64,000 nt of DNA from Echinarachnius parma (lineage: Eukaryota > Echinodermata > Echinoidea > Clypeasteroida > Echinarachniidae): positions 122,505 to 186,504 of the forward strand of contig JBAMJV010007954.1 in the NCBI GenBank assembly GCA_037951105.1. The letters run 5' to 3'. The position numbers were made by a program, and so were the translations under genes. Positions 37,313 to 41,084 of this stretch are shown here, one piece after another (position 1 is the stretch's first letter; each line of letters starts with the position of its first letter). Under the pieces are notes generated by a model. The model made no database searches and was not told the DNA's origin. It was given only the letters and a program-made list of their open reading frames with translations.

Positions 37313-37672
37313 TCCCTACCCTTCCTCCCCAACCCCATATCATTCACACTAGCATTATTCACACAACCAACAATGTGATATCTAAATCTCGATGGATTAT
37401 CAATCAATGGTTTTTAATTGGCACGCATACTATTTTTACACCCACACAGGTGTATTAATAGAATTGGACAAACAACTGACCTAACAAACAAACCACTTGA
37501 CCAATTGTAACTATTCAGCCTCAGCTTGTGAAATTTGAGGCCAAAAGGTATCCATATCATAGCGTGATTCAAGTACCACTATTTTTGTCTGAGAACTTGA
37601 CTCTTATACCCTTTTCATAGTGGTTCTATCAGTGTCACACCAATGAAAATACTGCCTTATGGGCAATTCCAA

Positions 37673-38666
37673 GGTAACGGAAGGACATTCAGACACAATT
37701 TTGGAACTTCAATCAAATAATTCCAGGATCCTGCTTTTGATTTTTTATTCTAAATGGCATGTCTTTGATCCTTGTTGGGACACCTTTGATTTCCACTATT
37801 TCTAAAATTTTGACCGCATTATGTAAATTAGATATGGACACTAATGAGGCCGGTAACGGAAGGACGCCAAAATGGACATGGCTTTTCAAATTTTTTAGTT
37901 ATGACCCAATCTCTGTGAAGTTACGAGGTTTATCATGTTAAGTTGGCTACTAGTCAATTTCCTTATGTTCAAAGAGTATAACACCACCTTTTAAGAAAAA
38001 TATCTACATTGGTATATTAATTATGAGAAATTAATAACTCCAGTGTTCGGTAACGGAAGGACGGTAACGGAAGGACCTCTGAAAAGTCTATTGGAATTGT
38101 ACAATAAAATTAATTTTGAAATTTAAAGACCATTTATGAGAAGGAAACATCTCTTTTGTGGTCTAAAATGAGTTTGTATCATAGATAGCATATGGACATC
38201 ACAACCATTTACATTTCTATTTTTTTCTTACTATATTTCATGCTCCAATAGCTCTTATTCATGGTCAATCCATGGTAACGGAAGGACACTCAGACACAAA
38301 TTGTCAACTTTAAGAAAGACATTTTTAAATACTTGTGTTGTTAGAACAGTCTATTTTGATAACACTACTTCCAAAACATACAGTTTTAAGGTCCCATAAT
38401 TGTTTTGATTTTTTTAATCTCCGCACATTATTGAATATGCATACAAATGAGGTCGGTAACGGAAGGACACTAAAATGGACAAGGTTTTGTTATCAAATCA
38501 GTTTTAACTAAAACTCTGTGATATTAAATAATACAAAATATTTTAAGGGTACACATTTCATTCTCTGAAGGGTTAAGAAGAATTTACTTGTTCTTTGATT
38601 AAAATTTGTCCGCAGATATTTGAGTTATTTCACACAAAGCGGACCAATGTTCGGTAACGGAAGGAC
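37673..38666 (+). repeat. Higher-order repeat, about 600 bp, with GGTAACGGAAGGAC boxes
   Basis: Boxes start at 37673, 37852, 38049, 38063, 38274, 38455 and 38653. Spacings 179/197 then 181/198 show two homologous units offset by about 602 bp. The two units are visibly diverged between boxes (shared text such as CAGACACAA and ACTAATGAGG/ACAAATGAGG), whereas the 14-base box is identical in all. Two further boxes lie at 39622 and 39786. Confidence 0.88.
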
Positions 38667-39600
38667 ATAATGGACTATAATGTATGATATGACACAGTAG
38701 GGTCATTCCATGTCAAATCACCTTTTAAAAATTTGAAAATTTTCATCGCAGCCCCCTTCAAATGTGCTAATATTTGGTATGTATGATATTTCAACCTTTA
38801 AAAGCGCAAATATTTAAGTTTTAGCCCAATCCGCCCAATGGTTTTGGCGCTATGGTCGATTCTTATAGGGGAGTTTTGTAAGAAATGGGCGTGGGCACCA
38901 TTTTTCAAATGGCCATTGTCCATTAGCCGTTGGGTCAATTTATTTTGTAAAGGTGCCATTGGATTGGGGATGTTATGTGCAATCCATTTATGCCATTTGT
39001 GTTCATGCATGAGCGAGTTTGGTTACGATAACCTTTGACCTTAGATTTTGACCTTCCGTTTTACCTCGTGGATCAAATAATTTTGAGAATTTTTTTGCTT
39101 AAATCTTGGCTTGATATAATTTCTACAACATATGAAAGAATTGGACATATTTTATTTCTTGCTTTTTCTACAGCCTTGTTTTTAGTTTGCAAATTTCATG
39201 TAAAATTTAATTATTTTAGACCTACACCCATGTCCAAGAATTCTATAGGGGTGTATTGTATAAAAAAAGACCTATTCAAAGTCATGATCAGAGCCTATTC
39301 ACACCCTGGCTCACCACAGTTAAATAGACCTACTAATCCCCATACAATAGAAATCCAGACAAATGGCATCATGATACAAGGGCCCTGTTGCAGAAAGAGA
39401 TAAAATCAATTGTGAGCCAGATCAAATGTTCTAAATGCACAAATCTGATTGGTTGAAACACAGAAAATTACTAGTCTGACCACGCTACGCCACTGATAGC
39501 TGGCCATTGCAGGTATTGTCTCATTATTTTGGGTTTTCATATATGAGAGACCAATTTTTGAACATAAATTTTGTCATAATATGTAATATGAGGTACCTTG
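38667..39600. other. Unassigned insert between motif blocks
   Basis: It contains GGGTCATTCCATGTCAAATC (a phrase I have seen as a dispersed repeat in other animal genomes), and a 122-codon plus frame at 39035-39403 without splice borders or motif. A degenerate inverse of the box (GACCTTCCGTTTTACC) is at 39050-39065. Confidence 0.4.
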
Positions 39601-41084
39601 TCCATCTGTTACCATGTGTATGGTAACGGAAGGACATTTTCTTTTGTTATTTATTAATTAACGAAGAAACAATGAGTAATACAATTGTTAGCCATGGGAA
39701 GGCCTACTTGAACTTGCTTTGCACTGAAGATTGGTCTGCTCTCTAACAATTATGTGAGCCACAAAATTAAAAATATTGATTTTTCGGTAACGGAAGGACA
39801 TTTTCATAGGCTGAACATAAGAAGTCATTGAAGCATAACAAATCAAATAAATCATACAAATTTACTATTTTACGAAATGGTCTTATCTCGGGAGTCAGAA
39901 TAATGGATTTTAGGCTTAACTGGGGAAATATAAAACAAACACAGGATCAAAACACTTTTTCACAAAAATGTCAAATTTGTGGGGTTCAATTATGGTTATA
40001 AAGTTATTATAAAAAAACAACTAAAATTATGTAAAACTAAAATGTTCTCATTGAATCCCAAAAATATAGAAATTAAGCTTTGATTTGATACCAAATTTGT
40101 ATCATAAAAATGCTTGTAAAATTTTTGGTCAAATGTCCACTTTGGCGTGGAATTGCCCTTATGTAAACAAAGTTGAAACCGCCGCTTTCCCGCATGTGCC
40201 ATTCATACTGCCGGAGAAATTCACTCACTGGGGCAAGCCTCGGCCGGAAGTGAAGAATTATTGCGCAATCGCTTGCTAGCTAGGCGCTACAGTGGCCAGA
40301 ACAAAATAATGACCTTTGACCATTTTCATCAGTGTTTTTCTCCCGAACACATTCAAACACAGCTTTTCATCGGAGTCGCACCGATAAAAAGAGAATTTCT
40401 CCTGCTCTTGAGCAGGAGAATTTCTTCGCCTATTTCTCATCTTTATATCGGCTATTTCTCCTCTGTACCATTCATAGTGGCCGTTTCATCAGGTGCGTCT
40501 GGAAGCATCCGATAAAAATCAGCGCACTATGAAAGGGGAATTAGTGTGATTCAAGTACTGGTACTATTTTTGTTGTGAGAATAAGACTTTTAGGTATACT
40601 AGACAGGATGTGGGTTATAATTGTTGACATATTTCCTCTAGCCAGCTCTAATTTCCCACTAACAGTTTGTTTGTGTGTTTCCAGGCTAGTTTGCCTGTCA
40701 TCAAGTCATATTGTGCCAGAGGGGGGACGTCAATCTCTTTTAATTTGTTATTTCAGATGCAATGGTCATAATTATGTTGTGCAAACATGACGAACTTGGG
40801 CAAGTTGTTTTTTAAATAGGTCCCAATATATACTCCCACTAGCAATACATACACTTCACATTCATAATGGTGATGTATACAAATATCCACAAGCCCTCAA
40901 ATATTATGTACATGTATAAGAAAACCATCAAGCATGCCACATGTTATTTAATGTTGTTATAAATACAGTGACCTTTGCAAATGAATGAGTGAGCTAAACG
41001 ATTTTGAGTTTACATCAATCCAGCCACTCAGATAAAACCAATTCATGTCATTACTGGGTTGCGTTGAGCCCATACAAGTTGCCA

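What the first reader, a model, noticed from the sequence alone, without database searches (positions are those of the whole stretch)
37609..40538. Nine identical GGTAACGGAAGGAC boxes in otherwise diverged repeats
Seven boxes lie in a 602-bp higher-order repeat, two of them directly adjacent (38049 and 38063), and two more are at 39622 and 39786. The DNA between boxes has diverged clearly while all nine 14-mers are unchanged. That pattern suggests selection on the box, as for a protein-binding site, similar to CENP-B boxes in satellites or transposase subterminal sites.
Basis: partly seen in the sequence, partly recalled or inferred. Interest (0 to 1): 0.75.

Follow-up and report, generated by a model that had tools for sequence, protein, structure and literature searches.

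The report
Nine identical DNA boxes, probably transposon-borne
A stretch of animal-like DNA with no recognised gene, probably a mobile element, carries nine copies of one 14-letter word that stayed identical while the DNA around them changed, which is the pattern expected where a protein, most likely the element's own mobility enzyme, must grip the DNA.

Summary
The window holds exactly nine perfect GGTAACGGAAGGAC copies, all + strand, between 37673 and 39799. Three sites (A, B, C) recur about 602 bp on, and these pairs match at 42/42 bases. The A-B and B-C spacers match at only 209/327 aligned bases, though they are clearly homologous (0 of 200 shuffles reach their scores). The DNA after C shows no homology, so about 400 bp were duplicated, not 602. 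Selection on a DNA-binding site is the best reading.

I read this as a non-autonomous DNA transposon with one-sided, iterated transposase (or helper-protein) sites, as in Galileo, En/Spm and Herves. The termini are only moderately significant (15 of 300 shuffles give such a pair). No transposase was recognised in the 10 of 22 ORFs scanned. No relatives are available, so the superfamily is open.

It is not a CENP-B box. An inverted box-like site (39600) carries two changes. The host genome is not held, so the decisive genome-wide count was impossible. It is a good candidate for a known mechanism, not a new class.

The parts
37661..40158 (.). proposed non-autonomous TIR transposon that contains all nine boxes (2498 bp)
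   Evidence: only perfect TIR>=11 + TSD>=4 pair in 36-42 kb; 15 of 300 shuffles give at least one; 10 of 22 ORFs of 37609-40538 scanned (7 wholly inside this stretch), none at a Pfam cut-off
37661..37671 (+). left TIR GGGCAATTCCA; the first box starts one base after it
40148..40158 (-). right TIR GGGCAATTCCA (inverted)
37657..37660 (.). TTAT, left target-site duplication (CTTATG 37656-37661 also possible)
40159..40162 (.). TTAT, right target-site duplication (CTTATG 40158-40163 also possible)
37661..38062 (+). first copy of the duplicated block (boxes A, B, C); begins at the left TIR
   Evidence: no homology to the second copy left of the TIR (p 0.24 and 0.30)
38262..38666 (+). second, diverged copy of the block (boxes A, B, C)
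37673..37686 (+). box A1
37852..37865 (+). box B1
38049..38062 (+). box C1
38063..38076 (+). box C1', tandem copy
38274..38287 (+). box A2
38455..38468 (+). box B2
38653..38666 (+). box C2
39622..39635 (+). box D1; in the right arm of an imperfect palindrome 39599-39636
39786..39799 (+). box D2
39600..39613 (-). box-like site with 2 mismatches, inverted to D1
39050..39065 (-). weak box-like site (2-nt insertion, 1 substitution); may be chance
   Evidence: nine other 3-edit sites in the window
40525..40538 (-). outer terminal motif CCCCTTTCATAGTG, 1 mismatch, inverted
37560..37607 (+). left copy of a ~48-bp direct repeat flanking the outer motifs
   Evidence: 0 of 1000 shuffles
40542..40592 (+). 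right copy of the same direct repeat

Best explanation
The boxes are iterated binding sites for a sequence-specific DNA-binding protein of a cut-and-paste DNA transposon. The element (37661-40158) is non-autonomous: it carries only cis-sequences, namely short TIRs and an array of 14-bp sites next to its left end. A transposase or helper protein made by an absent autonomous partner would bind the array, and the multiplied sites would raise avidity and end recognition. Copies whose boxes mutated would move less, so boxes stayed fixed in the element's lineage while the spacers of the duplicated ~400-bp block diverged. Zero changes in 126 box bases suggest that this copy inserted fairly recently. 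Shown: identity of the boxes, divergence of the flanks, inverted termini with a direct repeat, no Pfam family in the ORFs scanned. Inferred: selection, the binding protein, its being the transposase, mobility.
For: Nine exact copies against at most 4 of any 14-mer in 200 shuffles. The three homologous boxes match 42/42 while the A-B and B-C spacers match 209/327 aligned bases; at that rate 42/42 has probability about 7e-9. Conservation falls with distance from a box: 46/60 unit-1 bases at 1-10 bp, 32/52 at 11-20, 240/433 beyond (this count includes the non-homologous stretch after C). Boxes fall in all three frames and match at all 14 positions, which argues for constraint on DNA, not protein. 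Termini: 11-bp perfect TIR, TTAT direct repeat, first box one base after the left TIR, duplicated block starting at that TIR with no detectable homology outside it. Precedents seen as passages: Galileo, Herves, CACTA elements, Tol2.
Against: A TIR plus TSD of this quality arises in 15 of 300 shuffles of 36-42 kb, and a second such pair stands elsewhere in the window (5700-8244). The two ends reach their alignment score in 7 of 1000 letter shuffles, with stretches chosen after seeing them. The array is one-sided: the right end has no intact inverted box, and the nearest intact one is about 360 bp inside and points the same way as the left ones. The inverted box-like site at 39600 carries two changes. 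No transposase was recognised (10 of 22 ORFs scanned) and there is no second copy in the window. The TSD length does not fix a superfamily.
Confidence: 0.55

Rival explanations
1. Host transcription-factor cluster: the boxes are sites for a host regulator (by eye TAACGG resembles a Myb site and CGGAAG an ETS site; both recalled, not looked up), giving a homotypic enhancer or promoter, possibly carried by a transposon.
For: Homotypic same-strand sites with diverged spacers fit a regulatory array too; the one-sided array fits a regulatory region better than a pair of transposon ends.
Against: The first box stands one base after a TIR and the duplicated block begins there. Complete identity over 14 bp in 9 of 9 is stricter than usual for transcription-factor clusters (general knowledge). 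No Pfam family reached its cut-off in the ORFs tested (10 across the window; 10 in this region; one ORF is in both); most of the window's ORFs were not tested.
Confidence: 0.22
2. Satellite-type box: a chromosome-structural or recombination-promoting protein binds the box in a degenerate repeat, like CENP-B boxes or Box 1 of Meloidogyne satellites.
For: Box intervals of roughly 180-210 bp and a conserved short box in repeats of low identity, as reported for Meloidogyne (passages of PMC3694981).
Against: Not a CENP-B box; only two copies of the block and no satellite array; two boxes lie outside the block.
Confidence: 0.08
3. No selection: the 14-mer was copied recently into older DNA by templated insertion or short gene conversion.
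For: The abutting pair 38049/38063 shows that 14-bp tandem copying happened once.
Against: Boxes sit at homologous places in both diverged copies of the block; conversion would need tracts ending close to the box edges in unrelated contexts.
Confidence: 0.08

Closest known systems
Galileo (P-element superfamily), Drosophila (passages of PMC3688188)
   Same: Several sites for the transposase's THAP domain, the inner ones inside long direct repeats of the transposon end (footprint at +63 to +80, others at 561-577 and 701-718 bp), with conserved cores; proposed to add binding specificity.
   Different: Galileo-G has a 1.2-kb TIR; here TIRs are 11 bp, boxes are one-sided and nine in number; no THAP transposase found; binding untested.
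CACTA elements: En/Spm with TNPA, soybean Tgmt* (passages of PMC2613891)
   Same: Short subterminal motif (12 bp in En-1) repeated many times, asymmetric between ends (4 against 24 in Tgmt*), described as bound by an element-encoded protein and as a cis-determinant of transposition.
   Different: CACTA termini and, for Tgmt*, a 3-bp duplication; here the termini are GGGCAATTCCA and the duplication reads as 4 or 6 bp.
hAT elements Herves, Tol2, Ac/Ds (passages of PMC3143072, PMC8151067, PMC12910297)
   Same: Subterminal repeats, in Herves a short motif shown to be bound by the transposase; unequal ends.
   Different: 8-bp motif in Herves with variants present; 8-bp TSD in Tol2; here a 14-bp motif with no variant among the nine + strand copies of the element.
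Box 1 of Meloidogyne satellites / CENP-B box (passages of PMC3694981)
   Same: Short conserved box in repeats of 32-64% identity, in higher-order repeats.
   Different: Tandem satellites with a 17-bp CENP-B-like motif; here a single candidate element and a motif that fails the CENP-B core.

Membership tests
Cut-and-paste TIR DNA transposon (any superfamily) | terminal inverted repeats flanked by a target-site duplication | tested here: inconclusive
   GGGCAATTCCA 11/11 with TTAT on both sides, but 15 of 300 shuffled regions give such a pair
Cut-and-paste TIR DNA transposon (any superfamily) | multiple interspersed copies in the genome | not testable with these tools
   no genome held; no second copy in the window at 60 bp or more and E 1e-3
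Cut-and-paste TIR DNA transposon (any superfamily) | transposase, here or in a related autonomous copy | tested here: inconclusive
   10 of 22 ORFs of 45 aa or more in 37609-40538 scanned, none at a Pfam cut-off; consistent with a non-autonomous copy; a partner cannot be sought
CACTA (En/Spm) | termini beginning CACTA with a 3-bp duplication | tested here: not met
   inner termini GGGCAATTCCA with a 4- or 6-bp reading; in the outer motif CACTA lies at the inner, not the outer, edge
hAT / P superfamilies | 8-bp target-site duplication (Tol2; Pdre2) | tested here: inconclusive
   read as 8 bp it is CCTTATGG/CCTTATGT, 7 of 8 (sequence); 4- and 6-bp readings match fully
Galileo-like end organisation | transposase binds the repeated sites | not testable with these tools
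   needs footprinting or EMSA
CENP-B box | core NTTCGNNNNANNCGGGN (recalled) | tested here: not met
   8 of 9 boxes tested with 16-bp flanks: 3-4 of 9 core positions wrong; best anywhere in the element 2 wrong, which 157 of 200 letter shuffles equal and 25 of 200 beat
Satellite DNA | long tandem array | tested here: not met
   two diverged copies of a ~400-bp block only
Homotypic transcription-factor cluster | bound by a host factor and regulating a gene | not testable with these tools
   no expression or binding data

The most novel reading that the evidence does not exclude
A DNA transposon family with a strictly invariant 14-bp recognition site multiplied by duplication of one end only, so that recognition works by a one-sided, same-strand array rather than by paired ends; possibly the site of a host or element protein that also acts on gene expression or chromatin.
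Probability: 0.15. Interest if true: 0.6.

Novelty: new member of a known kind. Interest (0 to 1): 0.4.

Why it matters
If right, the element names its own protein's binding site in one sequence: the diverged copies of the left-end block act as an internal comparison that marks the 14-bp footprint without any relatives. That gives a ready probe for finding the autonomous partner and its DNA-binding domain, and a case for why some transposons pile up recognition sites at one end.

Tried and rejected
CENP-B box: rejected. Coding constraint: rejected, since boxes fall in three frames with all 14 positions identical and none of the 10 ORFs scanned of 22 reaches a Pfam cut-off; three had hits below it, E 0.034-0.1. 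RNA gene: Rfam at gathering scores gives only two tRNAs, both elsewhere. Paired boxes: 0 in viral contigs (gap 150-180) and 0 in genome contigs (gap 165-195). TIR+box and GGTCATTCCATGTCAAATCACC: 0 in viral contigs. The 20-mer GGTAACGGAAGGACATTTTC: one hit, in a Lachnospiraceae MAG, about what chance gives in 257 Gb by my arithmetic; not followed. Local BLAST of the region against the 89 fetched stretches: only the first 20 rows were printed; all had E 0.03 or worse and covered a box. Homology between different box contexts: 28 pairs, two sides each. Only A1/A2 and B1/B2 were clear on both sides; C1/C2 was not significant on either (p 0.16, 0.94), so their pairing rests on register and on the spacer alignment; three other pairs reached p 0.017-0.043 on one side of 56 tests. 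A second enriched 8-mer in the element: none above shuffles. Extension of the inner TIRs outwards: none (p 0.87). Literature: the 14-mer is in no held paper; one search gave 21 papers (20 listed) and one search gave 82 (15 listed), none of the listed titles on this element.

This is a choice, not proved.

Mended on checking: I had first taken the whole 602 bp as homologous and used 318/505 aligned columns as background; one search shows that the part after C is not homologous, and the figure is now 209/327.

Full report
Observation. GGTAACGGAAGGAC occurs nine times exactly in the 64-kb window, always on the + strand and only between 37673 and 39799. Dinucleotide shuffles of 37609-40538 never gave any 14-mer more than four times (200 shuffles). 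Seven copies form two sets in register (A, B, C, with C doubled in the first set), and two more, D1 and D2, lie about 1 kb further right. A box-like site at 39600 on the - strand has two mismatches. A weaker one at 39050-39065 is three edits away, but nine other places in the window are as close, and one outside the element (42703, + strand) is two edits away. So the invariance holds for the nine exact sites, which were picked as exact; related sites that have changed may exist.

How far does the duplication reach? The two sets lie about 602 bp apart, but only part of that is repeated. The A-B and B-C spacers align far above shuffles (0 of 200 reach their scores), while the DNA after C does not (134 of 200 do; p 0.31). 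So a block of about 400 bp, from the left terminus to box C, is present twice. The flanks of C1 and C2 alone were not significant; their pairing rests on register and on the B-C spacer.

Is it selection? The three homologous box pairs agree at 42 of 42 bases; the second C1 box, which has no intact partner, agrees at 8 of 14 in that alignment (50 of 56 in all). The two homologous spacers agree at 209 of 327 aligned bases. Gap-optimised alignment inflates this: shuffles give the same per-base figure (about 65%), and the spacers stand out only by needing fewer gaps, so the true identity is low. At 64% the probability of 42 of 42 is about 7e-9. This treats sites as independent, and the 14 bp were chosen as the shared word, so the figure overstates. 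The decline with distance is a softer check: 46/60 at 1-10 bp, 32/52 at 11-20 bp, 240/433 beyond, counted over the whole 602 bp including the non-homologous part. Identity at every position, in all three reading frames, points to constraint on DNA and not on protein. Zero changes in 126 box bases give a 95% upper bound of about 2.3% change per base since the boxes were last identical, if they then changed freely; the spacers differ far more, so their divergence is older.

Where are they? The first box starts one base after GGGCAATTCCA (37661-37671). The same 11-mer stands inverted at 40148-40158, and TTAT lies directly outside both (37657-37660, 40159-40162). It is the only such pair in 36-42 kb; 15 of 300 shuffled regions give one by chance, and a second such pair (5700-8244) exists in the window. 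Three things favour it beyond that: the box adjoins it; the second copy of the block has a diverged version (GGTCAATCCA, two edits) just before its own first box, though 15 places in the window come within two edits of the TIR; and homology between the copies is not detectable further left (p 0.24 and 0.30 for 30 and 52 bp). Of 22 ORFs of 45 aa or more in 37609-40538 ten were scanned; none reached a Pfam cut-off.

What does it do? The simplest account is a non-autonomous DNA transposon whose transposase, or a helper protein, binds the 14-bp sites. Arrays of such sites are documented: Galileo has THAP-domain sites inside the direct repeats of its long ends (passages); CACTA elements have repeated motifs for TNPA-like proteins, with strong left-right asymmetry in Tgmt* (passages); Herves has a repeated subterminal motif bound by its transposase, and Tol2 has subterminal repeats (passages). 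One study warns that an extra subterminal site can restrain transposition, as in piggyBat (passages), so the array could be regulatory. The weak points are the one-sidedness (seven intact boxes in the left 1 kb, none intact and inverted at the right), the modest significance of the ends, and the lack of any second copy.

Rivals. A host transcription-factor cluster is the main one and explains the one-sided array at least as well; it does not explain why the first box and the duplicated block start at an inverted terminus. A CENP-B box is excluded by sequence; a satellite function is unlikely with two copies. Mechanical copying of the box without selection does not explain the homologous positions in both copies.

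What could not be tested. The window looks eukaryotic (simple repeats, two tRNA-like genes, few long ORFs), but no genome is held for it, so its host and genome-wide copies are unknown. Searches of viral and prokaryotic collections were negative or at chance level, as expected. No held paper prints the 14-mer.

Verdict. A true and well-made observation with the right general inference (selection on a binding site), a repeat that is shorter than stated, a probably wrong element boundary and one wrong analogy (CENP-B). It is most likely a new member of a known kind, a transposon with iterated transposase sites, and worth following once the host genome is at hand.

Noticed in passing
2486-3252 and 10988-12291: A 323-bp tandem repeat in two places, about 98% identical, preceded by 7-bp repeats (GTCCGTC / TCGTCCG); 5301-5612 and 12292-12603 are 99.7% identical: recent copying within the window.
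   Followed up: no
35345-35791: 447-bp stretch that is its own inverted repeat at 95% identity, a foldback-like palindrome; weaker ones at 17113-17339 and 1810-2056.
   Followed up: no
40392-40425: Near-perfect hairpin (16-nt arms, 94%, 2-nt loop) near the right outer motif.
   Followed up: no
38700-38722: GGGTCATTCCATGTCAAATCACC, which begins like the TIR (GGGTCATTCCA against GGGCAATTCCA), 33 bp after box C2; perhaps a further nested end; 0 matches of its last 22 bases in viral contigs.
   Followed up: partly
37864-37879 and 40133-40148: ACGCCAAAATGGACAT, which overlaps the end of box B1, recurs inverted (15 of 16) at the inner edge of the right TIR, a possible second shared end motif.
   Followed up: partly
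36788-36874 and 37011-37100: 90-bp direct repeat, 91% identical, 223 bp apart, left of the element.
   Followed up: no
13372-13446 and 27078-27152: Two tRNA-like genes (Trp CCA, Ala AGC).
   Followed up: no
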